The notes beneath the pieces were generated by a model. It saw only the letters and a program-made list of their open reading frames with translations. It made no database searches and was not told where the DNA came from. The position numbers and the translations under genes were made by a program. From NCBI GenBank assembly GCA_021108395.1, contig JAIOQZ010000057.1, positions 1-64,000 of the forward strand: DNA of 64,000 bases. The letters run 5' to 3'. Source of the stretch: Candidatus Cloacimonadota bacterium. Its GTDB lineage: Bacteria > Cloacimonadota > Cloacimonadia > Cloacimonadales > JAIOQZ01. Shown here piece after piece: positions 2,812 through 27,139 of the stretch. Position 1 is the first letter of the stretch, and every line of letters starts with the position of its first letter.

Positions 2812-5800
2812 ATGCGTAACGTTTTATTCACTCTGTTTCTGCTGAGCTTCGGCATGCTTGCCGCTGGTGTCGTTCAGCAGTCATACACTATTCCCGTGCC
2901 GTCCGTCGAACTCGTGGACGGCTGGCACCGCGTCGCCCTCGAAGGCGGCGTCACTCTCACCCAGCCAGGGCTGCCCAGCCTGCCCGTCTGGCCGGTGCGC
3001 CTGCTTCTGCCTCCGGGCGAGCGAGCCGTGTCGGTCGAGGTCTCGTGGGCCGACGCCGTGAACCTCGGTGACGGTTACGAAGTGTTCCCTCAGCAGACGC
3101 CCGTGCCCACCAGCCATCAGGGCGCCATCGACTTCACCGCGCCCGACGCCACTGTTTATGGCAGCGATTCCGCCTGGCCCGCCGCCGACTTCACCACGCC
3201 CGACACACAGTACATGCGCGGACACTCCATCGCGCTGCTGCAGGTGTGTCCGGTGCGTTATCGCCCCGCCTCCGGCGAGTTGCTCTATCACCCCGAAGTA
3301 ACCGTGACCATCACGACTGCCCCGCACATCGAGGCGCAGTCTGCCCTACAGCGCCACCGTGGCGACCAGCGCACCATCGACCGCGTCGAAACCTCTGTGG
3401 ACAATCCATCATCACTGGCATTGTATCCCGCCACCACCCGCGACCGCATCGAAGGGCACATGCTGGTCATCATCACCGGCGCCGGCCAGGTCAGCTACTT
3501 CGACGATTTCGTCGAGTTCAAGACCCGCCAGGGGTTCAACCCGCTGGTGATGACCGTCGAGGACATCGATTCCAATTACACGGGCGTAGATACACAGGAT
3601 CGCATCCGCGCCTTCATCATCGACTGCTACGACGAGCATGATACCGACTACGTCATCCTGGGCGGTGACGTGCAAATCGTGCCCTTTCGCGGCTTCTATC
3701 TTCAAGCCGGCAGCACCGTCGATAACAACCTGCCCGCCGACATGTATTTCTCATGCCTCGACCGCGTGGGCATGGGCGACGGGCCCGACTGGAACACCAA
3801 CGGCAACAACCACTGGGGCGAACCAGGCGAAGCCGACTACTTCCCCGAGCTGGCCATCGGGCGTATCAGCGCCAACACGTCCGCTCAGTTCGACGCCGCG
3901 CTCAACAAGCAGATCATGTACCAGCTCAATCCTGTTGTCGGCGACCTTGACGAGGCGCTCATGGTTGGCGAGGAGCTGAATGACAATCCGCTCACCTGGG
4001 GTGGCGACTACAAAGACCAGATCATTGACGGCGGAAGCTATAACGGCTATACAACCACAGGTATAAGCAACGACTTCGACACCGACACCATGTACGAGCG
4101 CAATGGTAACTGGAGCCGCAGTCAACTCACTAACCGTATGAACGCCGGCCTCAACCTGCTGAACCATCTCGGCCACTCGAGCACCGACTACAACATGAAG
4201 TTCAGCAACCAGCATGTGACAGACAACAACCTCACCTCGAACGGCGTGAATCACAATTTCTTCATTATCTATTCACAGGGTTGCTACCCGGCGGCATTTG
4301 ACTACAACGACTCCATTGCCGAGAAGTTCACCACCATCGATAACGGCTGCGGCGTGTTTGTGGGCAATTCCCGCTATGGCTGGTACCAGCCCGGCGGCAC
4401 CAACTCGAGTTCGCAATACATGGACCGCCAGTTCTACGACGCCCTGTTCGGCGAGGGTATCACCCGCGTAGGCGACGCCAACGACGACTCGAAGGTGGAC
4501 GGCGCCGGACAGTGCAACGGCGACGCCTGGTTCCGCTGGACATACTACGAACTCAACGTGCTGGGCGACCCCAGTCTCGATGTGTGGACATCGACGCCGC
4601 AAACCCTCACCACAGATTACAGTCAGCAGATTCCGCTGACGACGACAATACTGCCCGTTGCCGCCGGCGCCCCGAACGCACTCATCTGTGTGAGCAAAGA
4701 CGGCGAGCAGCTTGTGAGCGCCTGGGCCAATGCCAACGGCAACACCGTGCTGAACTTTCCGGAGCCGTTCACCGACCTGGGTATCCTCGATATCTATATC
4801 ACCGCGCACGACTACCTCATCCACACGGGCGCCATCCAAATTATCGCAGCCGATCAGCCCTTCATTATCGTGGACGACTGGTCGATTCTGTCGGGTGACG
4901 ACGACCAGCTCGAGTTCGGCGAAAGCGGCACAATCACCCTCAGCCTGCGCAATATCGGCAACCAGCCATCCGACGACATCGACATCGACCTTTCGACGTT
5001 GAGCTCATACCTCGATTTCACCGACAACACCGAACAAATCACCGCTCTGGCCGCCGGTGAGCTTATCGAACTCGAGGCCGCCTTCTCGTTCGAGCTCGAA
5101 GCGGACGTGCCCGATCAACAACCCATCCCGATAACCATCGACATGAGCGACGGCTCATATAGCTGGTCGCCCCAGATTGTACCAATCGCCCTTGCGCCGC
5201 TGCTGGCGCTGGGCAATATCGTCGTTGACGACGATAACGGCCACCTCGACCCAAGCGAAACCGTCGATGTCGAAGTTTGGCTGGGCAACGACGGTTCGGC
5301 TGACCTGCACGACCTGGTCGTCAACCTCTCCACCGCCGATCCATACATCACCCTCAACCAGTCCACAGCCTCCATCAGCCTGCTGGAAGCCGGAAACCAG
5401 GTATCGATGGCGTTCAACATCACCGTTTCCTCTGACGTAGAAGAAGGCTATATGGCCAGCTTCGTCTTCGAGGTGGATGCCGAGCAGGGCATCGATTATT
5501 ATGACACCTTCGTGCTCATGGTGGGCGTTCTTGGCGAAAATTTCGAGACAGGCGACTTCTCCAACTACGATTGGGAAACGAGCGGCAGCGCCGACTGGTA
5601 TGTCACCTCCGGCGCATATGAAGGCAGCTACTGCGCGCGCTCCGGCAACATCGGCAACAACCAGACCACCACGCTGTCTCTCGACCTCAACACGCTCCAG
5701 AACGGCACGATTGGCTTCTGGTACAAGGTGAGCTGCGAAAACGGCCCCGCCAACAACTACGATTACCTCTGTTTCACTATCGACGGACAGGAGCAGGGCC

Positions 5801-6627
5801 GTTGGGATGGCATTATCGGCTGGAGCTATGCGTCATTTCCCGTCACTGGCGGCCAGCACACATTCTCGTGGGCATATTCCAAAGACCCTGCCGTGAGCAG
5901 CGGCTCCGACTGTGTCTGGATCGACATGGTCGAGTTCCCGCCGTTTGTGGGCGACGTGCTTTCGGTCTTCTTCCTCAGCCCCTCCGAACTCGATTTCGGC
6001 GTGGTGGACGTTGGACAGAGCGCCACGCGCAGCTTCACTATCTTCAACATGGGCTCGGCGACGCTCACAGGCAACATCAACGTGCCCGAAGGCTTCAGCC
6101 TCGACAGCGCCGCCTCGACGCGCAAGCCCAGCGAAACAGGCCGCGGTGAGCCAGCCAGCCGCACCGAGGTGCCATACAACATCGAGCCGTCACAGATGGC
6201 GCAGTTCCAGCTAACCTTCACACCGCCGGAAGAGGGCGATTTCAGCGCCGGCATCATCATCACCTCGAACGACCCGTTCCACGCGGCCAACGTGCTGAAC
6301 GTGATTGCCAGCACATTTGTGGCGACAGATGATGAAGCGGTGCAATTTGTGGACGCGCTGCTGAGCAACCACCCCAATCCCTTCAATCCGACAACGACCA
6401 TAGCGCTCAGTGTAGCCTCCAACCACACACCCGTTCGCGTGGACATCTACAACCTGCGCGGCCAACGGGTGCTCACTCTGCACGACGGTCTGCTCGACCA
6501 AGGCGAACACAGCCTTGTGTGGCATGGTCAGGACGACCAGGATCGCGCCGTCGGCTCCGGCATTTACTTCCTACGCACCCAGATCGGTGACAAAGCCTTC
6601 CTGCGCAAGATGCTGATGCTGAAGTAA
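2812..6627 (+). CDS. Secreted gingipain-family (C25) cysteine peptidase with C-terminal sorting domain
   Basis: 1271 residues with a signal peptide (1-18) and a propeptide-like region. The peptidase C25 domain spans about 215-600; the motif NHLGHSS places the catalytic His at 455 and SQGCYP the catalytic Cys at 491, a spacing close to that of gingipains. Ig-like/CARDB-type repeats follow (about 690-900), then a jelly-roll segment (about 910-1050), an Ash/choice-of-anchor-type domain, and a C-terminal FlgD-like sorting domain from PNPFNPTTTI to the final KMLMLK. It should be exported and processed at the surface by a type IX-like system. GGAAGG precedes the ATG and a strong terminator follows. 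Convergent with a second C25 gene. Confidence 0.88.
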   Translation: MRNVLFTLFLLSFGMLAAGVVQQSYTIPVPSVELVDGWHRVALEGGVTLTQPGLPSLPVWPVRLLLPPGERAVSVEVSWADAVNLGDGYEVFPQQTPVPTSHQGAIDFTAPDATVYGSDSAWPAADFTTPDTQYMRGHSIALLQVCPVRYRPASGELLYHPEVTVTITTAPHIEAQSALQRHRGDQRTIDRVETSVDNPSSLALYPATTRDRIEGHMLVIITGAGQVSYFDDFVEFKTRQGFNPLVMTVEDIDSNYTGVDTQDRIRAFIIDCYDEHDTDYVILGGDVQIVPFRGFYLQAGSTVDNNLPADMYFSCLDRVGMGDGPDWNTNGNNHWGEPGEADYFPELAIGRISANTSAQFDAALNKQIMYQLNPVVGDLDEALMVGEELNDNPLTWGGDYKDQIIDGGSYNGYTTTGISNDFDTDTMYERNGNWSRSQLTNRMNAGLNLLNHLGHSSTDYNMKFSNQHVTDNNLTSNGVNHNFFIIYSQGCYPAAFDYNDSIAEKFTTIDNGCGVFVGNSRYGWYQPGGTNSSSQYMDRQFYDALFGEGITRVGDANDDSKVDGAGQCNGDAWFRWTYYELNVLGDPSLDVWTSTPQTLTTDYSQQIPLTTTILPVAAGAPNALICVSKDGEQLVSAWANANGNTVLNFPEPFTDLGILDIYITAHDYLIHTGAIQIIAADQPFIIVDDWSILSGDDDQLEFGESGTITLSLRNIGNQPSDDIDIDLSTLSSYLDFTDNTEQITALAAGELIELEAAFSFELEADVPDQQPIPITIDMSDGSYSWSPQIVPIALAPLLALGNIVVDDDNGHLDPSETVDVEVWLGNDGSADLHDLVVNLSTADPYITLNQSTASISLLEAGNQVSMAFNITVSSDVEEGYMASFVFEVDAEQGIDYYDTFVLMVGVLGENFETGDFSNYDWETSGSADWYVTSGAYEGSYCARSGNIGNNQTTTLSLDLNTLQNGTIGFWYKVSCENGPANNYDYLCFTIDGQEQGRWDGIIGWSYASFPVTGGQHTFSWAYSKDPAVSSGSDCVWIDMVEFPPFVGDVLSVFFLSPSELDFGVVDVGQSATRSFTIFNMGSATLTGNINVPEGFSLDSAASTRKPSETGRGEPASRTEVPYNIEPSQMAQFQLTFTPPEEGDFSAGIIITSNDPFHAANVLNVIASTFVATDDEAVQFVDALLSNHPNPFNPTTTIALSVASNHTPVRVDIYNLRGQRVLTLHDGLLDQGEHSLVWHGQDDQDRAVGSGIYFLRTQIGDKAFLRKMLMLK

Positions 6628-6646
6628 CTGAGTAACCGGATATAGT

Positions 6647-6677
6647 AAGAGGCACGCCATACGGCGTGCCTCTTTTT
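6647..6677 (+). terminator. Rho-independent terminator after the first C25 gene
   Basis: GAGGCACGCC (6649-6658), a four-base loop and GGCGTGCCTC (6663-6672) form a perfect 10-bp stem, extendable by A-T pairs and followed by TTTTT. It lies between two convergent genes and may also stop the opposing transcript, though the minus-strand T-run is weak. Confidence 0.9.
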
Positions 6678-6694
6678 GTATGCTGGTTGCTGCG

Positions 6695-9600
6695 CTACTT
6701 CAGCAGCAGCGCCTTACGGACGCGGATGTAGCCTGGGGCTTCGAGGCGATAGAGGTATATGCCCGAGGCGCAGCCTTCGGCTGTCCAGGTAATGGTATGT
6801 CCACCGGCTTGCATGTATTCATCTACAAGCGTTGTCACCAGCTGCCCGCGCAGGTTGTACACCTTGACGGTGGCGCGGCCTGGCTGCGCCATGCTGAACG
6901 CGATGGTCGTGGTGGGGTTGAAGGGGTTGGGATAGTTGGGCCGCAACGCGGTGACAAAGCCGGGCACGGTATCGCCGTCGCCGCCCTCTGGTGGCTCGAT
7001 GTTGATGTAAACCAACTCGCTGGGCGCGCTGATGCCGGTGTCATAGAGCTGCTCGACCCAGAACAGGTACTCGCGCTCGGTGTCGATGACGGTCTGCCAG
7101 ATGCCGGCGCCTGCAACCGAGTCAACCATTGTGGCCTGTCCGGCTTCCTGTTGCATCCAGATGTTGGTCTGGACATAGTCATAGCGCTGGGTGTTGGCGC
7201 TGGCGCGGCGACTGGCGTCGTGCTTGCGGGTGGACAGAATCAGCTCATCCCAGGTGAGAGTGAGGTTGCCCTCGTCGTCGAGGTCATAGTCCACCGAGTC
7301 GATGGGCGGCAGCCATAGCAGCTCGAGGTCCTGGTCGAACAGTTCATCGCCCTGCGCCAATTCGAGGCCGGCCAGAATGCCCGACTCATACCAGCGCAGA
7401 CCGCCAGTGAGGTCGTAGGTGTCGGCGGTAGCGTAGAGTGTATAGTCGCCCGCTTCGTCGGGATGAATGGCGAACGGCCCGGCGTTCACCCAGATGTCCT
7501 CGATCGGGTCGTGGGCGTCGTCCATGCTCACAGTACCGTGCAGGATACCAGAGCGTTCCGTTCCACCGCTCACAACAACGTCGTCGATAGCCCATCCATA
7601 AGCCACCGTGCTGCCGTCGGAACCGAAGTGCCAGCGCAGCTTGATGTCGTCGTTTGCATATGCGGCAAGGTCGAATGTGACCGGCACCCAACCGCCGGAA
7701 TCACCGGAGAAGCCCGGCTCGCCCCCGATTGCCGAGTTGCCGTTGGACATCGAAGCCGTGGGATAACCGCCCACCGGCTCGACGACGTTCCAGGTGATGC
7801 CGTTGTTGGTCGAAAGCTTCACGTTGCCGCCATCGGCGTTTTCCTGGGTGTCATAGTAGTGCCAGAAGGAGAGAGTGGTGTTGTCGCCGATGAAGAACGC
7901 CGATGTGCCGACAAACCACGCGACATTGTTGCCGTAGTTCGTGCCGATATGCGTTGCCCAGGCATGTGTGCCCGAATGCGAGCCCACGCTGGGTTCGCCA
8001 TACTGCCAGCCGCCGTAGGCCATGAATCCGCCGTTGTCGGCCTCGAAATCCTCCTCGAAACCCCAATCGCCGATGCCCATCGGGAGTTCGAAACTCTGTG
8101 TGGACATGAAAGTGGCGTCGGCCTCGAAATCATACCACGCCGAACTGGGAACAGGCGCTCCGGCATCGACGGTAACGGTGAACACGCGCTGCACGGATTC
8201 GCCCGGCAGGAGGTCACCGAAGGGCATTTCTTCCTGCTCGATGCTGACCCACTCGTTGTCGGTGGCGAGCAGGCTCTGGATGTCCATGGCCGGCGACATG
8301 CTTTCATTGCACAGGTTGACGATGAGCTTGCCTGTTTCACCGGGGTCCATCACGCCGTTGTTGTTGCCCTCGAGGTCGTTGATCATCGTCGAGAACACGC
8401 TCAGGGTTGGCTTGTGAACGGTGAGGAAGAACGGGTATGACCAGTTGCCGTCGGCATTCGATATGCTGATGGCACAGGCCAGTTCACGGCCATCTGGTGC
8501 ACCCGATGAGATCGTCATGCGATAATAGCTGCGGTTGACGCCCTTCGATCCGGCGTCGATGAAGCGATATGCCGAGGTGTCGCTTTCGATAGTGGCATAG
8601 CCGTCGTAGCACTCGATGGTGGCGAAGGCGCCGAAGCTTGGGCTCATGCCGATGTTTTCGAGGTAGATGCCCAGATCAACGGTCTCGCCGGCGTCGATGA
8701 AACCGCTGCCGTTCTCGTCGTGAACGGTGATGTCGCCTAACGTCAGCCAGGAGTCGGGATACACAATGGGCGTGGTGGTGAACAGAATCGCTTTGTTTGT
8801 GCCCAGCGCTCGGCCGCCTGGAGCGTAACTGTTGTCGTAGCTGTACTGTAGGCCCATGCCACCGCAGGGACTTTGGAGACCGACGGTGCAGTAGTTGCCC
8901 TGTGCGCCGCTGGCCGAGTTCGAGCCGTCAACGTTGTTGAAGTCGGCGTACTGAATCTTGATGATGCCGTCGCCGGTGGGCGTGGGGTTAAACGCCTGAT
9001 CGTAGAGCAGAATCTGGAACGTTTCATTGGTGTTGCCAATGCTGTTCTTGGCGTCCCACTGAATGATGAAGCAGGGCGTTTCGGGGTGGGTTGTGTCGTC
9101 GAACCAGGTGTAAACGCCGCCGCCGCTGGTACGCAGGTCGTCCCAGAAAGCGGCCACCATCGCGTTGGGGCCCAGGCCGTCGGGAAGAGGCCAGTTACGG
9201 AAAGTGACCTGCTCCGTTGGCAGGAAACTGATCCAGCCGTTGCTACAGATGGTGATGCCGGTGTACTCTTCGCCGTAGAAGCGGAAAGTGAACGGCAGAT
9301 CGATCCAGACAATGTCGTCGCCCTCGTCGCTGGTATCGCTCAAACCGGTGTCAGTGCCGGGGCCGCCGCTGCCGGGCGCTATCTCGATCCACTCGTAGTC
9401 GGGCGCCTGGTCGTAGCCGTTGTCGCCGTCGTCAAAGCAGATATAGCCATAGGCGTCGGGGCCGGCCGCGTCATCCACGGTCACCGTACCCACATCCATG
9501 ATAAAGGTTTCGATTTCCTCATAGCCGTCGGCGTTGAAGAAAGTCACCTGTAGTTCGATGCACATGCCGGGGATTAGCTGATTGAGTCCTTCAATCTCGA

Positions 9601-12175
9601 ACGGATCGGCGGTGCAGGTTGCAGAACCACCGGCTGGGATGTCGCCGAAGAAGGCCATCGTGTCGATCTCGGAGATGAGGCCGTTGAGCGAGTAGAGGTC
9701 GGCGTAAACATCGGTGAGGTCGGTCTCGCCGTTGTTGGTCACGGTGAGCCGCAAGGGGGCCTGTTCGCCCGGATCGATGTTGCCGTTACCGCCGTCAACC
9801 ACTTCGTAGGCGGTGATGTCCAAATCATTGCCGTGTATATACAGCCACATGCGGCTGGACCATGTATCGCCGCTGTCGTCGCTGATGGACAGGATAATCA
9901 TGGCCTCGTGGCGGTCGGGTGCGTCCGCCATGATTTCAATATCGTAGTCCTCGAGGCACTCGGCGGTTCCACCGGCGCCGATGGAGCCAAAGTCTTCGGT
10001 GTTGTCGATGATGCTGATGAAGGGGCTACCGCAACTGAGAGTGGCGCTCACGCCGGAAACGCTCGAGGCGCTCCAGTTCTTCAGGCTCACGATAAGCTCG
10101 ATGAGCTCGCCGGGGTTGGCGTCGCCGTTGTTGTTGCCCTGCGAATCGCCGTTCGAGTCGTCGTCGATAACCATCTGTTGAAAGCTGACGCCGCCAGTGG
10201 CAGCAATGTCGAACTCGCCCAGGTGGGGGATGTAGTCGGGCTTGGTGACGGTAAGGTCAACCTCGCCGGGGATCATGGCGTTCAGGCGCAGCGTAATCTG
10301 CCCTGATGCATCGGTGTAGCCAGTGGCAAAGATGTCGTCATCGCCCTGGCGCGCAGTCACCCACACCCCTTCCATGGCGCCGCCGTCGTCATCGGTGACA
10401 ACCACGTCCAGCCAATCCTGCCCCAGAGGTATCTCGGTGTCGTAGGCGGCGTTCAGCGGTAGCGGCTCGGCCACCCAGATGTCCATGCTGGGGTCGCCCA
10501 TCTGGTTGCACCAGTGAATGAACATCTGCGCATAGTTGGTGGCGCACTGGCCATAACTGAGCCACATGCTGAGTTCGGCGCGCACAAGCGCCTCTCCCAT
10601 TGTTCGCATGCCATCGCTGACCATCCCCTGATACAATCCGCCTTGCAGGATGTTGTTGAACTGCGTGTGCGTGCCCGAGGTGGCCATACCGATGGCCGAA
10701 ACGGCGCCGGTGGGCTGGCTGGGTGTGCCCGCGCGAAAGAACACCTCGGTGGTGGCAGTGCTGTTGAAGCTGCCGGTGGAGCAGGTGAAGATGGTGCCGT
10801 TGCACAGGCGGTTGACGTTTGTAAGGCCATTGATGTTGCTACTGCCCCAGCCGCTCATGCCAATCCAGCCACGGTAGTTGAAGACAAGGCTGCCCTGGTT
10901 GAGAGCCGCATCCATCTGGCTGGTGTTGGGGCTGGCCGCGTATAGCTCGGTGAATGTATGCTGGGGGTCGCTTTGAAGGAGTTGCTCTTTAACGTACTTG
11001 TTGGTGATGATGCACGACAAGCCGGACGGACTGGTGTCGCCCACGAGCAGGCTGTGATGATAGAGGCTCGGGTCGTCCATATAGACTTCACGCTCATAGA
11101 GGTTCATCTTGGCCAGGAAGGTCATCATGTGAGTTGTGGATTCGATGCTGATGCGGCCGATGAAGAGGTCTGGCAGGTAGTCGTTACCGGCCAGCAGGCT
11201 GTATGGATAGTCGCCAGCGCCGTTGTACCAACTATAGTTCTCTATCCATGTGGGAATACCGAAGCTGCCGCCAGTATCGCCGACGAGGACGACAAATTCC
11301 GGCGGGTTTTCCCATGTATCATATGCGTTCTGGATGTAGCTCTTGATGTTCGAGTTGGTGCTGCCGGTGACGCCTGTGTCCACGGCGACAATGTCGAAGC
11401 CTTTGGTGCGTTTCCAGTCAACGAACTGCTCTACCAGTTCGTCGAGGCTGGCGTTGTTTGCCTGAATGACAAGGATGCTGCGCGCCTGGAACGGCTCGTT
11501 CTCGTCGCGGATGTCGTCCCAGTTGAGGATGGTGGCGGCATAGAGGTTCTCGAAACTGCGCGAGGCGGGCATATGGCGCACCGGCGTGTTTCCGGCCGGA
11601 GTTCTGGTGTAGCGCAATCTCACTGTGGCGCTTTGCAACACCGTGAGGTCGCCGTTCAGCGGGTCGAAACGGAAGGGGTTGATGTTGACGCCGACAACGC
11701 GAACGCCGCGCATCAAAGAGGGTTCGCTGATGGTGACTGGCTCCTGCGACCACTGACGCATGCCGCTGTAGAAGGCTTCGTCACGAACGAATCCGCGAGT
11801 TTCGCCGTCGAGGTGCACGCCCTGTGACGGATATATGTTCATGCCGGGCAGCACGGTGTACTGCGGCTCGACGAGCTCGATTTCAACGCCGCCCTGGTCT
11901 GGAATGCCCAGCATGGTGGCAAAGAACGGCAGCTCGGGCAGCCCTTCCTCGATGGTCGTCGCTGACTGGCCATACGAAAGGCGCTGATAGTTTACACCGT
12001 CGATTTCTACCTGCTGCACACGGCAGGAAGGAAGCTGGAACGTGAACTCGGTGTACTCCTGGTTGGTTTGCGTGGCTGTGAATAGCGGGTCGAGATTGCG
12101 CCCAGTGAATTCGACTTGTGCAGCCATCATCGACGTGACGGCCAACAGAAACAGTAGGGGGAAGCATTGCTTCAT
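6695..12175 (-). CDS. Very large secreted C25-family peptidase-like protein with sorting domain
   Basis: 1826 residues from the ATG at 12175, which has AAGGAG 9 bases upstream and opens a clear signal peptide; the frame extends 31 codons further without a better start. After a propeptide, a C25-like domain (about 260-600) follows. The expected catalytic Cys is at 465 (FTCSTGS), but the position aligned by eye with the gingipain His is Trp 437 (NYRGWIG), so activity is uncertain. Then come a carboxypeptidase-regulatory-like segment, several CARDB/Ig repeats, a nidogen-like domain around DTSDEGDD and WISFLP, an immune-inhibitor-A/MAM-like jelly roll (about 1400-1580) and a type IX-like tail (PNPFNPTTTI ... 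ALLLK). Likely surface-exposed or released. Confidence 0.85.
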   Translation of the reverse strand: MKQCFPLLFLLAVTSMMAAQVEFTGRNLDPLFTATQTNQEYTEFTFQLPSCRVQQVEIDGVNYQRLSYGQSATTIEEGLPELPFFATMLGIPDQGGVEIELVEPQYTVLPGMNIYPSQGVHLDGETRGFVRDEAFYSGMRQWSQEPVTISEPSLMRGVRVVGVNINPFRFDPLNGDLTVLQSATVRLRYTRTPAGNTPVRHMPASRSFENLYAATILNWDDIRDENEPFQARSILVIQANNASLDELVEQFVDWKRTKGFDIVAVDTGVTGSTNSNIKSYIQNAYDTWENPPEFVVLVGDTGGSFGIPTWIENYSWYNGAGDYPYSLLAGNDYLPDLFIGRISIESTTHMMTFLAKMNLYEREVYMDDPSLYHHSLLVGDTSPSGLSCIITNKYVKEQLLQSDPQHTFTELYAASPNTSQMDAALNQGSLVFNYRGWIGMSGWGSSNINGLTNVNRLCNGTIFTCSTGSFNSTATTEVFFRAGTPSQPTGAVSAIGMATSGTHTQFNNILQGGLYQGMVSDGMRTMGEALVRAELSMWLSYGQCATNYAQMFIHWCNQMGDPSMDIWVAEPLPLNAAYDTEIPLGQDWLDVVVTDDDGGAMEGVWVTARQGDDDIFATGYTDASGQITLRLNAMIPGEVDLTVTKPDYIPHLGEFDIAATGGVSFQQMVIDDDSNGDSQGNNNGDANPGELIELIVSLKNWSASSVSGVSATLSCGSPFISIIDNTEDFGSIGAGGTAECLEDYDIEIMADAPDRHEAMIILSISDDSGDTWSSRMWLYIHGNDLDITAYEVVDGGNGNIDPGEQAPLRLTVTNNGETDLTDVYADLYSLNGLISEIDTMAFFGDIPAGGSATCTADPFEIEGLNQLIPGMCIELQVTFFNADGYEEIETFIMDVGTVTVDDAAGPDAYGYICFDDGDNGYDQAPDYEWIEIAPGSGGPGTDTGLSDTSDEGDDIVWIDLPFTFRFYGEEYTGITICSNGWISFLPTEQVTFRNWPLPDGLGPNAMVAAFWDDLRTSGGGVYTWFDDTTHPETPCFIIQWDAKNSIGNTNETFQILLYDQAFNPTPTGDGIIKIQYADFNNVDGSNSASGAQGNYCTVGLQSPCGGMGLQYSYDNSYAPGGRALGTNKAILFTTTPIVYPDSWLTLGDITVHDENGSGFIDAGETVDLGIYLENIGMSPSFGAFATIECYDGYATIESDTSAYRFIDAGSKGVNRSYYRMTISSGAPDGRELACAISISNADGNWSYPFFLTVHKPTLSVFSTMINDLEGNNNGVMDPGETGKLIVNLCNESMSPAMDIQSLLATDNEWVSIEQEEMPFGDLLPGESVQRVFTVTVDAGAPVPSSAWYDFEADATFMSTQSFELPMGIGDWGFEEDFEADNGGFMAYGGWQYGEPSVGSHSGTHAWATHIGTNYGNNVAWFVGTSAFFIGDNTTLSFWHYYDTQENADGGNVKLSTNNGITWNVVEPVGGYPTASMSNGNSAIGGEPGFSGDSGGWVPVTFDLAAYANDDIKLRWHFGSDGSTVAYGWAIDDVVVSGGTERSGILHGTVSMDDAHDPIEDIWVNAGPFAIHPDEAGDYTLYATADTYDLTGGLRWYESGILAGLELAQGDELFDQDLELLWLPPIDSVDYDLDDEGNLTLTWDELILSTRKHDASRRASANTQRYDYVQTNIWMQQEAGQATMVDSVAGAGIWQTVIDTEREYLFWVEQLYDTGISAPSELVYINIEPPEGGDGDTVPGFVTALRPNYPNPFNPTTTIAFSMAQPGRATVKVYNLRGQLVTTLVDEYMQAGGHTITWTAEGCASGIYLYRLEAPGYIRVRKALLLK

Positions 12176-14940: not shown

Positions 14941-14987
14941 AAAATTTAAGCGCAGGAGAGGCATGGTTGCTTCTCCTGCGCTTTTTC
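14941..14987 (-). terminator. Bidirectional terminator after the chemoreceptor gene
   Basis: GCGCAGGAGA (14951-14960) and TCTCCTGCGC (14973-14982) form a 10-bp stem. The A-run on its left gives T residues on the minus strand; TTTTT on its right gives them on the plus strand. It sits 60 bases beyond the stop of the minus-strand chemoreceptor gene. Confidence 0.88.
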
Positions 14988-20585: not shown

Positions 20586-21677
20586 TCAAGTGATAACCCG
20601 CAGGCGATCTATCTCGTGCTCTGCGGCTGTCAGCTCCTCCACATTGAGCTCAAGCTCTCGCAGTCGCGCAGCCAGCACAGGCACTATCGGATTCTCGGTG
20701 TGAAAATGTCCGGCCAGTACCAGCGGTACGGAGCTGTCCAACATACCGTGATAATTGCTTTCACCCAGCACAAAGACCTCGGCTCCGGCAGCCCGGGCTG
20801 CCCTTGTGAGTGTCCCCCCCGAGCCTCCACACACCGCCACGCGTCGCACCAGCTTATCCTCCGGTTGGCCCGCCGGCCACAACTGCGCCACAGGAGCGCC
20901 CAGTCGTTCACGGACAAGCTCTGCCACTCCGCGCAGCGTCATCGGCTCTGACAGCTCGCCCACCAACCCCAATCCGTGATTGGGATCTGGCCGACGCTGC
21001 GGATAGACGGCGTAAGCCGGGGTCTCATAGGGGTGAGCGGAGCGCATGGCGGACAGCACAGCGTCGAGGTGAGCGGTGTCGCAGAAGAATTCGAGCTTGT
21101 CCTCGCGCACACTTTCCATCTTTCCCACGCTGCCCACTGCCGGATGAGCGCCTTCGAGCGGACGGAACCGGCCATCGACGGGGTAGCTGTTGAGACAGTG
21201 ACTGTAGTTGCCCATCACGCCTGCGCCGGCCTCATGCACGGCATCGGCGACGCGCTGGGCGGCATCCGACGGAACATACACCGCAACGTGCAGCGGCTCC
21301 GCGCCTGACTCGTGACTGAGCAGGATGCAGTCGCGCAGGCCAAGACGCGCGGCCAGGGCGTGGTTGACGCCGCCGCGAGCCACGTCGAGGTTGGTGTGAG
21401 CACAATAGACGGCGATGCCGTGCCGCGCCAGTCGCAGGATGAGCGGGTTGTTGATGCGCGCCAGCGGCTTCAGAAACAGCGGGTGGTGACTGACGACGAG
21501 TCGGCAACCGGTGCGCACGGCTTTGTCCACGGCGGCGCGGGTGACATCCAGCGTGACGAGCACGCGCTCGACCTCCTGTCCGGCATCGCCCAGCAGCAGG
21601 CCGACATTGTCCCATTCCAGCGCCAAGCCAAGCGGCGCGAAGCGCTCAAGGGCGGTGGTGATGTCTCGAATTTTCAT
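20586..21677 (-). CDS. Nif3-like dinuclear metal-centre protein (YqfO type)
   Basis: 363 residues. The N-terminal Nif3 half carries ALEWDNVGLLLGD and the metal ligands in VVSHHPLF, and the C-terminal half carries LAGHFHTEN. Between them (about 130-240) is the inserted PII/CutA-like domain with HPYETPAYAVY, so this is the long YqfO form. Family members form toroidal hexamers with a di-metal site; annotations as GTP cyclohydrolase I type 2 exist but the physiological role is unsettled. The ATG has AAGGAA 7 bases upstream. Convergent with the kinase gene with only 19 bases between stops. Confidence 0.93.
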   Translation of the reverse strand: MKIRDITTALERFAPLGLALEWDNVGLLLGDAGQEVERVLVTLDVTRAAVDKAVRTGCRLVVSHHPLFLKPLARINNPLILRLARHGIAVYCAHTNLDVARGGVNHALAARLGLRDCILLSHESGAEPLHVAVYVPSDAAQRVADAVHEAGAGVMGNYSHCLNSYPVDGRFRPLEGAHPAVGSVGKMESVREDKLEFFCDTAHLDAVLSAMRSAHPYETPAYAVYPQRRPDPNHGLGLVGELSEPMTLRGVAELVRERLGAPVAQLWPAGQPEDKLVRRVAVCGGSGGTLTRAARAAGAEVFVLGESNYHGMLDSSVPLVLAGHFHTENPIVPVLAARLRELELNVEELTAAEHEIDRLRVIT

Positions 21678-21696: not shown

Positions 21697-21724
21697 TTGA
21701 CAGATATTGTTACGAGTGTATCTT
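21697..21724 (+). promoter_or_regulatory. Promoter of a putative small RNA
   Basis: A perfect TTGACA (21697-21702), 16 bases, then TATCTT (21719-21724). No plus-strand gene follows. The same -35/-10 pair, with 17 bases between, precedes the higB gene in this window. Confidence 0.5.
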
Positions 21725-21730
21725 TTAATT

Positions 21731-21790
21731 AATCCGCTGAAGCGGAGGTGGATGACATTTGTCATTGCCCCGGGAAACCGGGGGTTTTTT
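21731..21790 (+). ncRNA. Putative 60-nt structured small RNA
   Basis: Downstream of a good promoter lies a 60-base stretch that is nearly all hairpins: TCCGC-TGAA-GCGGA (21733-21746), ATGAC-ATTT-GTCAT (21752-21765) and a terminator CCCCGG-GAAA-CCGGGG (21768-21783) followed by G and TTTTTT. The terminator has no plus-strand gene upstream to serve, which argues for a short independent transcript. No reading frame of note. It lies antisense to the leader of the Nif3 gene, so an effect on that gene is possible. I do not recognise an RNA family. Confidence 0.5.
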
Positions 21791-22550
21791 ATGACAGTTT
21801 CTTGACGTCACACCCTTGATGTTTCCTTCTTTCATTTTTGTAGTATTCTTTTCTCGGATTTACAATAGCTTGAAGTAATGAATATGCACGATTAACCATT
21901 ACCAATATTTGATTAAATTCTACATTTCTTGCTTTCATTTGTATCTTTTCTGAATCCAATTGAAAGGTCACTATCACATTAGGTATATTGAATGCCCAAG
22001 TAGTTTGCTCACTTCTTAAAATTAGCTTTGCATCATCTTTTTTGGGCATTATTCGCATTGAATGTTTGAAAGCATTGTAGAAATCTCTATCAAGGTAGAT
22101 TTTAGATAAAGTTACTAAGTCTCTCCCAATTTTCTCGATTTGTTCACATGAAGTTTTATTATCACCAAGATAGTAAATTTTCTTCAATGTAGTACTTTCG
22201 AGCAAATTTCCCTTTGTGATTTGTTGAGCTGTTTGGCTGGGTTGTTTGACTTTTCGTAAATACAAATTTTTCACAATATGCGAAGGTTGCCTATAGAGAA
22301 CATTATGCAATTCAAGTAGAGCCTCAATGATATGATGCTGCAGAAAAATAGCCTCAAGATGTAAAAAGGATTTGTAATCACTATTCTGAAGTTCAGTGTT
22401 AGCCTTTTTGTCCTGAAAGATCTGCCAACTCATACTAATAGTTTGTATCTTATATTTCCAGAAATCAATGAAGTAATTTAGGAAAAACAGTTCATCCGCT
22501 TTTTTATCGTCAATGTTTCCATTCGCTGAAAAATTCATTGAAACAGTCAT
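21789..22550 (-). CDS. AT-rich orphan gene of unknown function
   Basis: 253 residues from the ATG at 22550, which has GAGGAG 6 bases upstream; the frame extends further to 22622 without a ribosome site. The predicted protein is largely helical, Lys/Asn/Ile-rich and without membrane segments, signal peptide or a motif I recognise. Base composition and codon use are far more AT-rich than the flanking Nif3 and methyltransferase genes, suggesting horizontal acquisition. It lies beside a dispersed hairpin repeat. A helical accessory or defence-related protein is possible but unsupported. Confidence 0.7.
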   Translation of the reverse strand: MTVSMNFSANGNIDDKKADELFFLNYFIDFWKYKIQTISMSWQIFQDKKANTELQNSDYKSFLHLEAIFLQHHIIEALLELHNVLYRQPSHIVKNLYLRKVKQPSQTAQQITKGNLLESTTLKKIYYLGDNKTSCEQIEKIGRDLVTLSKIYLDRDFYNAFKHSMRIMPKKDDAKLILRSEQTTWAFNIPNVIVTFQLDSEKIQMKARNVEFNQILVMVNRAYSLLQAIVNPRKEYYKNERRKHQGCDVKKLS

Positions 22551-22629
22551 ACTTGCTCCTCTATCTAATAGAGTTTTCCAATTAATTCGAAGTCTAATCA
22601 ACTTGTTGTGAATCAACAACATGGTGCTT

Positions 22630-25606: not shown

Positions 25607-25649
25607 TTGACAAAATGGGAACAAGGAAGTATCTTGTCATATGAAGATA
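25607..25649 (+). promoter_or_regulatory. higBA promoter with palindromic operator over the start codon
   Basis: TTGACA (25607-25612), exactly 17 bases, then TATCTT (25630-25635). The -10 is the left arm of a perfect inverted repeat, TATCTT-GTCATATG-AAGATA (25630-25649), whose centre holds the higB ATG (25641). Transcription would begin about at the start codon, implying a leaderless or near-leaderless mRNA. The antitoxin HTH is the expected binder. Confidence 0.65.
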
Positions 25650-25952
25650 TCTAACAATGAAGCGTTGATTGAATTCATGCACAAACACAAAGATGTATCT
25701 GAGCTAGTGAAAACATGGAGAAACGATGTAAAGGCAGCCACATGGGATAGTCCTCATGCACTAAAGGAGTGTTTTCCAAAAGCAAGCATTATAGGGAGTG
25801 GCTGTGTTGTTTTCGATATCAAGGGGAACAAATATCGGATAGTAACAAAAATCAAATACAAGTTGCATATCGTCAACATACGTTGGTGTGGAAAACACAC
25901 TGAATACAACAAACTAGACCTGAGGAGCACGAAATGTCTGAGCCCAAGCTGA
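25641..25952 (+). CDS. higB: HigB-type mRNA interferase toxin
   Basis: 103 residues of the HigB/RelE-like fold (PF09907 type): central VVFDIKGNKYRIVTKIKY and C-terminal VNIRWCGKHTEYNKLDL match the conserved core where the toxin binds the ribosome and cleaves mRNA. There is no usual ribosome site: GGAAG lies too far upstream, and the -10 box ends 5 bases before the ATG. It overlaps the antitoxin gene by 19 bases, giving toxin-first order as in hig loci. AT-rich relative to neighbours; probably acquired. Confidence 0.85.
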   Translation: MKISNNEALIEFMHKHKDVSELVKTWRNDVKAATWDSPHALKECFPKASIIGSGCVVFDIKGNKYRIVTKIKYKLHIVNIRWCGKHTEYNKLDLRSTKCLSPS

Positions 25953-27139
25953 TTACTTCTGATAAAGAACATGAAGACGCAATGCGCCAACTCAACATCC
26001 TCCTTGATAAGGATGAGTTAAACGTTCAGGAAGAAAACAAGCTAGAGCTATTAGCATACCTTATCGAGAAGTATGAGGAAGAACATTTCCCAATAGGCAA
26101 TCCAGACCCCATCGAGGCCATCAAGTTTCGCATGGAGCAAATGGATTTGAGCCAGGATGATCTCGTGCCCTACATTGGTAGCAGTAGCAAAGTATCTGAA
26201 GTACTTAACAAGAAACGATCCCTTTCACTGAAAATGATCCGTGATCTCCACTTCGGCTTGGGCATCCCGTATGACTCCCTTCTTGGAAATAACGATAGCA
26301 ATGAAAACATGGTAACACTTGATTGGTTTAAGTTTCCCATAGCGGCTATGTATAGGCCCAAGTTCAAAAAGTATTTCTTCCCCTTGGTGAAAGTTCAGCT
26401 GAGCAGAATCAAAGAAAAAGCAGAAGAGTACCTACGTCCGTTAATAACGCCTTATCATCCAATTTTTCAGAATTGTTTTCGCAGGCAAAATGTCCGCATG
26501 GGTTCTTCGTCTGATGAATACGCACTGGTTGCTTGGATAGCCGCTTGTTGCCGCATTGCCGACCAAGAAAAATTACTTCAAGCATTCAATCCAAAACACG
26601 AAAAAGAACTTATCCAAGCCCTGAAATCCGTCAGTTTACTGGATGAAGGCCCTAAATTAGCTAAGGAGATGCTGAAGAAGTTTGGCATTCATCTGGTCAT
26701 TATACCACATCTGCCGAGAACTCATCTTGATGGTATTTCCTGCATTGGGTCAGACGGCAATCCTATCATCGGTATGACTCTTCGATATGACAGACTGGAC
26801 AACTTCTGGTTCACACTGTATCATGAACTTGCACATGTTCTGTTACATCTGCAAGGTTCCGATAGTAACGAGGCATTCGTTGATGACCTTAAATATCGAG
26901 CGAACAACGATAAAGAAAGCGATGCAGATGCTTTTGCCAGTACAACGCTGATAGACGACAAACTGTTGGAAGAAGATAATATGTTTGAAGACTATTCAGC
27001 TGAAAGAGTGCTTGAATTCGCTAACAAGCACTCGATACATCCTTCCATTGTAGCGGGACGAATCCGACATCATTTGAACAACTACCGGATTCTCTGGAAT
27101 CTCGTGGGCAATGGGCAAGTTCAAGAGCAACTATTTTAA
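25934..27139 (+). CDS. higA: HigA-like antitoxin fused to an ImmA/IrrE metallopeptidase domain
   Basis: 401 residues. The N-terminal third resembles HigA antitoxins: a helical lead (about 1-50), then an Xre-type HTH around IEAIKFRMEQMDLSQDDL and VSEVLNKKRSLSLKMI (about 60-110). The C-terminal half (about 245-370) is an ImmA/IrrE domain with zinc-peptidase motif HELAH at 297-301 and a downstream ESDADAFA acidic helix, the usual third ligand region. AGGAG sits 8 bases before the ATG, inside higB. The HTH should repress the operon; the peptidase could destroy the antitoxin or another repressor on a signal. AT-rich, so likely mobile. Confidence 0.85.
   Translation: MSEPKLITSDKEHEDAMRQLNILLDKDELNVQEENKLELLAYLIEKYEEEHFPIGNPDPIEAIKFRMEQMDLSQDDLVPYIGSSSKVSEVLNKKRSLSLKMIRDLHFGLGIPYDSLLGNNDSNENMVTLDWFKFPIAAMYRPKFKKYFFPLVKVQLSRIKEKAEEYLRPLITPYHPIFQNCFRRQNVRMGSSSDEYALVAWIAACCRIADQEKLLQAFNPKHEKELIQALKSVSLLDEGPKLAKEMLKKFGIHLVIIPHLPRTHLDGISCIGSDGNPIIGMTLRYDRLDNFWFTLYHELAHVLLHLQGSDSNEAFVDDLKYRANNDKESDADAFASTTLIDDKLLEEDNMFEDYSAERVLEFANKHSIHPSIVAGRIRHHLNNYRILWNLVGNGQVQEQLF

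What the first reader, a model, noticed from the sequence alone, without database searches (positions are those of the whole stretch)
21697..21790. Candidate small RNA with three hairpins antisense to the Nif3 leader
A consensus promoter, three back-to-back hairpins and a strong terminator with GAAA loop occupy 94 bases on the strand opposite to both flanking genes. A terminator with no gene upstream is hard to explain otherwise.
Basis: partly seen in the sequence, partly recalled or inferred. Interest (0 to 1): 0.58.

Follow-up and report, generated by a model that had tools for sequence, protein, structure and literature searches.

The report
Orphan DUF3800-linked three-hairpin small RNA
A 60-base RNA gene sits alone here, but its relatives in several bacterial phyla lie against the end of a gene for a nuclease-like protein of unknown function (DUF3800), so this looks like one half of a little-known RNA-protein pair.

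Summary
On the + strand there is a promoter (21697-21724), three hairpins (21733-21783) and a U-tract ending at 21790. It is one member of a conserved RNA family. A covariance model built from this copy alone found clear homologues in other Cloacimonadota; a six-sequence model then found it in genomes outside the class. I accept 16 copies (15 distinct). Helices covary: 98.7% of 234 cells pair, and 11 of 16 pairs show compensatory change. A promoter lies at a fixed distance upstream in 13 of 16. No Rfam match was found. Seven of 15 distinct copies lie against the 3' end of a whole or contig-split DUF3800 gene on the opposite strand. Six more, this window included, adjoin a broken DUF3800 or its tail. 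This genome has no DUF3800 gene. So it is an orphan RNA gene of a DUF3800-linked module. My best mechanism, a protein-binding RNA that probably restrains its DUF3800 partner, is inferred. 'Antisense to the Nif3 leader' is not supported: the RNA starts 54 bases upstream of Nif3 and runs away from it. DUF3800-linked RNAs are known; this class is not in Rfam.

The parts
21697..21724 (+). sigma-70-type promoter TTGACA-16-TATCTT, 6 bases before the RNA start
   Evidence: the same fixed position in 13 of 16 accepted copies and 0 of 6 rejected hits
21731..21790 (+). the RNA: three hairpins and a U-tract; start at A21731 is inferred from the promoter
   Evidence: folding; homologues; covariation
21733..21746 (+). 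hairpin 1 (TCCGC-TGAA-GCGGA)
   Evidence: 5 pairs, 3 with changes on both sides among 16 copies
21747..21750 (+). conserved linker GGTG between hairpins 1 and 2 (context GGAGGTGGATG)
   Evidence: alignment A9
21751..21766 (+). hairpin 2 (GATGAC-ATTT-GTCATT)
   Evidence: 6 pairs, 3 with changes on both sides among 16 copies
21768..21790 (+). hairpin 3 with GAAA loop and U-tract, intrinsic terminator
   Evidence: 5 modelled pairs, all 5 with changes on both sides
21789..21845 (-). remnant of the 3' end of a DUF3800 gene (about 18 codons and stop), now the tail of another ORF
   Evidence: DNA similarity to L123 and L125 beats 2000 of 2000 shuffles, to L122 1993 of 2000; BLASTN of the unit 21697-21845 against L123, E 1.7e-8. 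Protein-level profile not significant (0.3 bits)
21789..22550 (-). 253-codon AT-rich ORF (277 codons from the first ATG at 22622), convergent with the RNA; function unknown; not recognisably DUF3800
   Evidence: no family or homologue found
20586..21677 (-). Nif3/DUF34 gene, divergent from the RNA; neighbour only

Best explanation
This is an intact RNA gene, about 60 bases, belonging to a family of small structured RNAs that pair with a subfamily of DUF3800 proteins. SHOWN by sequence: a sigma-70-type promoter at a fixed distance, an RNA starting at AAUCC, three covarying hairpins, and a terminator whose U-tract abuts or overlaps the stop codon of a DUF3800 gene on the other strand; the promoter-RNA-DUF3800 block is shared between unrelated locations. 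In this genome the DUF3800 gene is gone except for its last codons, which end another ORF. INFERRED: the RNA is made in trans and is bound by the DUF3800 protein (RNase H-like fold in print), most likely restraining it as an RNA antitoxin does, which would explain why the RNA keeps its promoter and fold after the protein gene is lost. My confidence is about 0.9 that it is a homologous small-RNA gene, 0.8 that the family is functionally tied to DUF3800, and 0.3 for the antitoxin-like step.
For: The model from the window copy alone scored 50, 49, 46 and 38 bits in four other Cloacimonadota genomes, E 4e-16 to 8e-11 per genome. The six-sequence model found copies in genomes outside the class at 32-57 bits, and one more at 25 bits. 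Covariation: 11 of 16 pairs with changes on both sides, 37 such cells against 1-12 when partners are slid (alignment fitted to the model); on an independent MAFFT alignment of 15 copies, 11 pairs predicted, 6 with double changes. Promoter at the fixed place in 13 of 16, although the models hold no promoter. Gene context, also not in the models: DUF3800 or a piece of it adjoins 13 of 15 distinct copies; L204 and L205 among these were found through DUF3800 and so do not count as independent. The converse: 9 of the 14 genomes with a DUF3800 relative at E <= 1e-12 among 386 carry this RNA at the DUF3800 3' end. The shared block runs from the -10/-35 region to the DUF3800 start and no further. More distant DUF3800 genes carry a different, two-hairpin RNA in the same place. 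DUF3800: RNase H fold and ncRNA association as printed in PMC10910872 (passages).
Against: No transcript data exist here. Two of 15 distinct copies (L180, L190) have no DUF3800 tail; L180 has a different DUF3800 gene about 450 bases away on the other side. The protein-level test of the window tail failed (0.3 bits). The decayed copy L177 (= L145) shows no tail similarity to the window (1054 of 2000 shuffles as good). RNA antitoxins of known type III systems lie upstream of the toxin on the same strand, unlike here (recalled). That DUF3800 proteins are toxic or bind these RNAs is untested. The phage DUF3800 relative L195 shows no such RNA by eye.
Confidence: 0.72

Rival explanations
1. A cis antisense device: convergent transcription from the RNA promoter, and base pairing of the RNA with the read-through 3' end of the DUF3800 (here 253-codon) mRNA, lowers expression of that gene. 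The structure is just a terminator with extra stems.
For: The RNA ends exactly at the stop codon of the convergent gene in most copies, so a mRNA reading through would carry its full complement.
Against: Pure antisense pairing needs no conserved fold or conserved unpaired letters across distant bacteria, yet AAUCC, GGAGGUGGAUG and CAUYG are kept and stems covary. Orphan copies keep them without the gene. L204 lies about 90 bases from the stop.
Confidence: 0.2
2. Partner exchange: the 253-codon AT-rich ORF has taken the place of DUF3800 and is the new protein partner of this RNA.
For: The ORF stops in the same place relative to the terminator as DUF3800 does, and has a ribosome site before an ATG at 22550; the RNA, promoter and terminator are intact.
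Against: No homologue was found to show a second such pair: 58 genomes, viral contigs, plasmids, phages. The fold prediction was useless (mean pLDDT 38).
Confidence: 0.15
3. DNA remnant of a mobile element: RNA plus tail are the inert right end left after deletion, with no RNA function now.
For: Patchy distribution (7 of 124 genomes of the class), decayed copies (L177, L178), a sharp module boundary, the empty site next to an aconitase-like gene in most relatives.
Against: No transposase, inverted terminal repeats or second end were seen. In the window the conserved RNA letters, stems and promoter are all intact while the adjoining DUF3800 tail has drifted, which is the opposite of uniform decay.
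Confidence: 0.15
4. Antisense or divergent regulator of Nif3.
For: It lies directly upstream of Nif3.
Against: The RNA runs away from Nif3, starting 54 bases upstream of its start codon. By eye, the Nif3 upstream stretches that could be read in relatives show no such element (the minus-strand loci there were printed on the wrong side and say nothing), and the homologous RNAs that I accept sit beside other genes.
Confidence: 0.05
5. Guide RNA of a DUF3800 nuclease, as omega-RNA is for TnpB/IscB.
For: DUF3800 is printed as RNase H-like and linked with ncRNAs and with Cas12 loci (PMC10910872).
Against: The RNA begins at the first stem and ends in its terminator; no free 5' or 3' stretch that could vary as a guide was seen; only hairpin loops vary. 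It is on the opposite strand from the gene.
Confidence: 0.07

Closest known systems
Rfam DUF3800 RNA motifs (DUF3800-I RF02969 and DUF3800-IX RF02968 seen named in PMC11701678; the series and its 2017 source are recalled, and that paper is not held)
   Same: Structured bacterial RNAs found next to DUF3800 genes.
   Different: No match of the window or of the homologous loci to any Rfam family above gathering score at the RNA, nor to a DUF3800 family at lax thresholds. RF02969 rang in 0 of 386 genomes, its control also silent. Their orientation towards DUF3800 could not be checked.
Type III toxin-antitoxin systems (ToxIN-like; recalled)
   Same: A small structured RNA paired with a ribonuclease-type protein, with a terminator between RNA and gene.
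   Different: Here one RNA unit on the opposite strand with its own promoter, no direct repeats, and a different protein fold.
TnpB/IscB omega-RNA systems (recalled; RAGATH-18 case seen in listing only)
   Same: RNA at the 3' end of an RNase H-type nuclease gene within a mobile block.
   Different: Opposite strand, own promoter, intrinsic terminator, no guide stretch, no transposon ends.

Membership tests
DUF3800-linked convergent RNA family described here (class A) | covariance-model match | tested here: met
   The window copy seeded R1; R1 found L122-L125 independently at E <= 8e-11; with R2 the window scores 73 bits, but it is in the training set
DUF3800-linked convergent RNA family described here (class A) | promoter with the -10 box 4-9 bases before AAUCC | tested here: met
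   10 of 12 matches, 14 of 2000 shuffles as good
DUF3800-linked convergent RNA family described here (class A) | intact DUF3800 gene ending at the terminator | tested here: not met
   no DUF3800 in the genome; only a DNA-level tail remains
Rfam DUF3800 motifs | match to the Rfam covariance models | tested here: not met
Rfam DUF3800 motifs | proximity to a DUF3800 gene | tested here: inconclusive
   met in relatives (7 of 15 distinct with a whole or contig-split gene), tail only in the window
Type III toxin-antitoxin | antitoxin RNA repeats upstream of the toxin on the same strand | tested here: not met
   single unit, opposite strand
Type III toxin-antitoxin | RNA neutralises the protein | not testable with these tools
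   needs expression assays
TnpB/IscB omega-RNA | RNA overlaps the nuclease gene on the same strand and carries a guide | tested here: not met
   opposite strand; ends at its terminator without extension

The most novel reading that the evidence does not exclude
DUF3800 proteins in many bacterial lineages form an undescribed two-part system with a small structured RNA transcribed head-on into the gene's 3' end. At least two RNA classes (three hairpins with GGAGGUGGAUG; two hairpins with a GGAU...GUCGGCG core) share a GGAU-stem-CGG core and follow the protein subfamily. The RNA half persists alone, as here, as an orphan antitoxin-like RNA or with a new protein partner.
Probability: 0.35. Interest if true: 0.78.

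Novelty: new variant of a known kind. Interest (0 to 1): 0.62.

Why it matters
DUF3800 is a widespread nuclease-like domain of unknown function, known to be near candidate RNAs and Cas12 loci. This work shows a recurring architecture (own promoter, RNA ending at the stop codon of the opposite gene), compact boundaries, defence-gene neighbours in some copies, and orphan copies. It gives tractable pairs on plasmids of harmless bacteria in which RNA-protein binding and toxicity can be tested directly.

Tried and rejected
Small peptide: GGAGGUGGAUG resembles a ribosome site and start codon, but by reading A9 the frame and peptide are not kept and L204 and L205 lack the ATG; rejected.

Known Rfam sRNA: weak hits (PsrR1 18.4 bits against a gathering score of 42, anti-hemB 15.3 against 49.5) are terminator resemblance; rejected.

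Most of the 65 of 147 genomes with R1 hits at E <= 0.1 look like ordinary GC-rich terminators; only the best were looked at. In one search, 30 places in 28 genomes passed E <= 1e-4. I examined 20 of the 30. I accepted 14 as class A (six are the training copies) and rejected L185-L189 and L191 because they lie within or across ORFs, lack most of the conserved letters and lack the promoter. The promoter contrast is therefore partly circular for these six. Ten places were not examined. L204 and L205 entered through the DUF3800 protein search and cmsearch, giving 16. The viral pattern hit L176 was chance.

Protein-level proof that the window ORF tail is DUF3800 failed (8 tails used for the profile). 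Structure prediction of the 253-codon protein gave mean pLDDT 38 and was not searched further. My simple terminator rule missed the Alphaproteobacterial and phage class-B RNAs, whose U-tract is short or interrupted (0 of 5: L192, L193, L194, L196, L197; L210, L184 and L195 also gave none). Among 40 control genes in that call, 5 had a convergent terminator and 2 also a promoter; both of those 2 are loci counted here as members. RF02969 search: 0 of 386, control silent, so uninformative. Literature: searches for DUF3800 with RNA motif, DUF3800 alone, the 2017 title, DUF3800 with antisense, a six-term search and Cloacimonadota with small RNA showed no description of this class; only open-licence papers are held.

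Full report
1. What is there. The window lies in a 2.89 Mb Cloacimonadota genome (phylum inferred from the Nif3 relatives). Between Nif3 (20586-21677, minus) and an AT-rich ORF (21789-22550, or to 22622, minus) the + strand carries TTGACA-16-TATCTT, then from 21731 three adjacent hairpins and a U-tract ending at 21790. The T-run overlaps the stop codon of the AT-rich ORF. Promoter and terminator taken singly are within chance expectation; the three-hairpin block is the only one of its kind among 109 T5 runs in the window. Rfam has no match above gathering score in the window, and weak matches only at lax thresholds.

2. It is a family. A covariance model made from this one copy and its fold (R1) found one strong place in its own genome and four strong homologues elsewhere: L122 (G078, 50.3 bits), L123 (G096, 48.7), L124 (G058, 45.9, near-identical to L123) and L125 (G119, 37.6). 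A fifth, decayed, copy (L145/L177 in G025) was found beside a broken DUF3800 gene. The six-copy model R2 searched 386 genomes. With the gene-context finds L204 and L205 I accept 16 copies: 7 in 7 of 124 genomes of the window's class (handles G000-G123) and 9 in genomes listed only as 'same domain'.

3. It is an RNA. On the 16 copies, 98.7% of 234 pair cells are standard pairs. Eleven of 16 pairs have changes on both sides, and there are 37 double-change cells against 1-12 when partners are slid by 1-3 columns and 10.5 on average in shuffles (this alignment was fitted to the model). On an independent MAFFT alignment of the 15 distinct copies RNAalifold recovers helices 1 and 2, with 11 pairs of which 6 have double changes; it does not recover helix 3, where gaps abound. 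AAUCC, GGAGGUGGAUG and CAUYG are largely kept. A promoter of at least 9 of 12 matches, with the -10 box 4-9 bases before AAUCC, is present in 13 of 16 copies; L125, L177 and L182 score 8. It is present in 0 of 6 rejected hits.

4. It belongs with DUF3800. Among the 15 distinct copies: an intact DUF3800 ORF converges on the RNA in L122, L123, L182, L184, L205 and, with about 90 bases between, L204. In L181 the gene is split over contig ends. Broken genes or tails only: L125, L177, L178, L179, L183 and the window. None: L180 and L190; L180 has another kind of DUF3800 gene on its other side. Conversely, of 14 genomes with a relative of the L182 protein at E <= 1e-12 among 386, 9 carry this RNA class at the 3' end. 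Four (L206, L207, L210, L211) carry the second class by inspection, and one (L208) a promoter and terminator without that core. DUF3800 proteins with class A RNA form one side of a branch, support 78/61, which is not strong.

5. Module boundaries. BLASTN of L217 against L218 shows a shared block from 16 bases before the RNA to the start of DUF3800, about 950 bases, and L216 against L220 one from the -35 box into the broken gene. The window shares 150 bases with L123 (E 1.7e-8), window 21697-21845: promoter, RNA and about 18 codons of DUF3800 tail. The tail similarity beats 2000 of 2000 shuffles for L123 and L125 and 1993 of 2000 for L122. It does not for the decayed L177, and a protein profile of the tail gives only 0.3 bits. 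In one lineage the module sits upstream of an aconitase-like gene: of 30 such loci searched, 3 carry RNA and DUF3800, 1 a decayed copy, and the others no convincing copy (best other hit 14.3 bits).

6. The window copy is an orphan. The genome has no DUF3800 match. The convergent ORF here has no recognised family and no homologue found. Orphans occur elsewhere too: of 17 plasmid records with the class-B RNA of a Bradyrhizobium plasmid, 13 have an annotated DUF3800 under the match. Of the 4 without, I looked at 3: one has an unannotated DUF3800 (43% identity), and two have none within 1.5 kb.

7. A second class. More distant DUF3800 genes (Bradyrhizobium, Methylobacterium, Novosphingobium and Shinella plasmids, Pseudomonas phage JBD68 and others) carry in the same place a two-hairpin RNA with the core GGAU...GUCGGCG. 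Nine sequences (L208 and L195 left out) give 22 predicted pairs, 12 with double changes. Rfam again shows no DUF3800 family match at E <= 0.05.

8. How it may work. Shown: gene structure, conservation, linkage, orphaning. From print: DUF3800 has an RNase H fold with rearranged catalytic residues and known ncRNA neighbours (PMC10910872, passages); Rfam lists DUF3800-I and -IX (PMC11701678, passages). Inferred: the RNA binds DUF3800 and restrains it. Fixed letters in unpaired stretches, co-inheritance with the protein subfamily, intact orphans and the compact movable block fit an RNA-protein pair better than plain antisense control. Nine contexts were fetched; I scanned neighbour proteins in three of them, chosen by eye (L214, L215, L222), and found defence-type genes in each: a type IIG restriction enzyme, an IetA-like ATPase, and a TIR/Pycsar effector with a Res subunit. 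That choice is not a fair sample. The sequence does not decide between antitoxin, cofactor and regulator.

9. Verdict. It is a new variant of a known kind, DUF3800-linked RNAs, with an orphan state that makes the RNA's own role testable.

Noticed in passing
L192, L193, L194, L196, L197, L206, L207, L210, L211 (3' of DUF3800): A second, two-hairpin convergent RNA class at the stop codon of more distant DUF3800 genes on plasmids and a phage, covarying and without an Rfam match.
   Followed up: partly
window 25641-27139 (+): HigB-type toxin gene (PF09907) followed by a gene with an IrrE/M78 domain: a likely toxin-antitoxin pair about 4 kb from the RNA, in AT-rich DNA.
   Followed up: partly
window 21789-22550 (-): 253-codon AT-rich ORF (about 33% GC against about 60% in the flanks) without any detectable homologue; its tail is a drifted DUF3800 end.
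   Followed up: partly
L223 and L224 (Bradyrhizobium plasmids): Class-B RNA copies with no DUF3800 within 1.5 kb; in L223 the next genes are an XRE regulator and a DUF4411 gene.
   Followed up: partly
L222 around 4849-9791: DUF3800 plus class-A RNA next to a Res-type helicase and a TIR/Pycsar-type effector.
   Followed up: no
window about 14944-14981: A long GC-rich inverted repeat with T runs on both sides, a strong bidirectional terminator, the most stable in the window.
   Followed up: no
L180 / L215: Class-A RNA beside a DUF4391 gene, with an unrelated DUF3800 gene on the other side and an IetA-like ATPase nearby.
   Followed up: no
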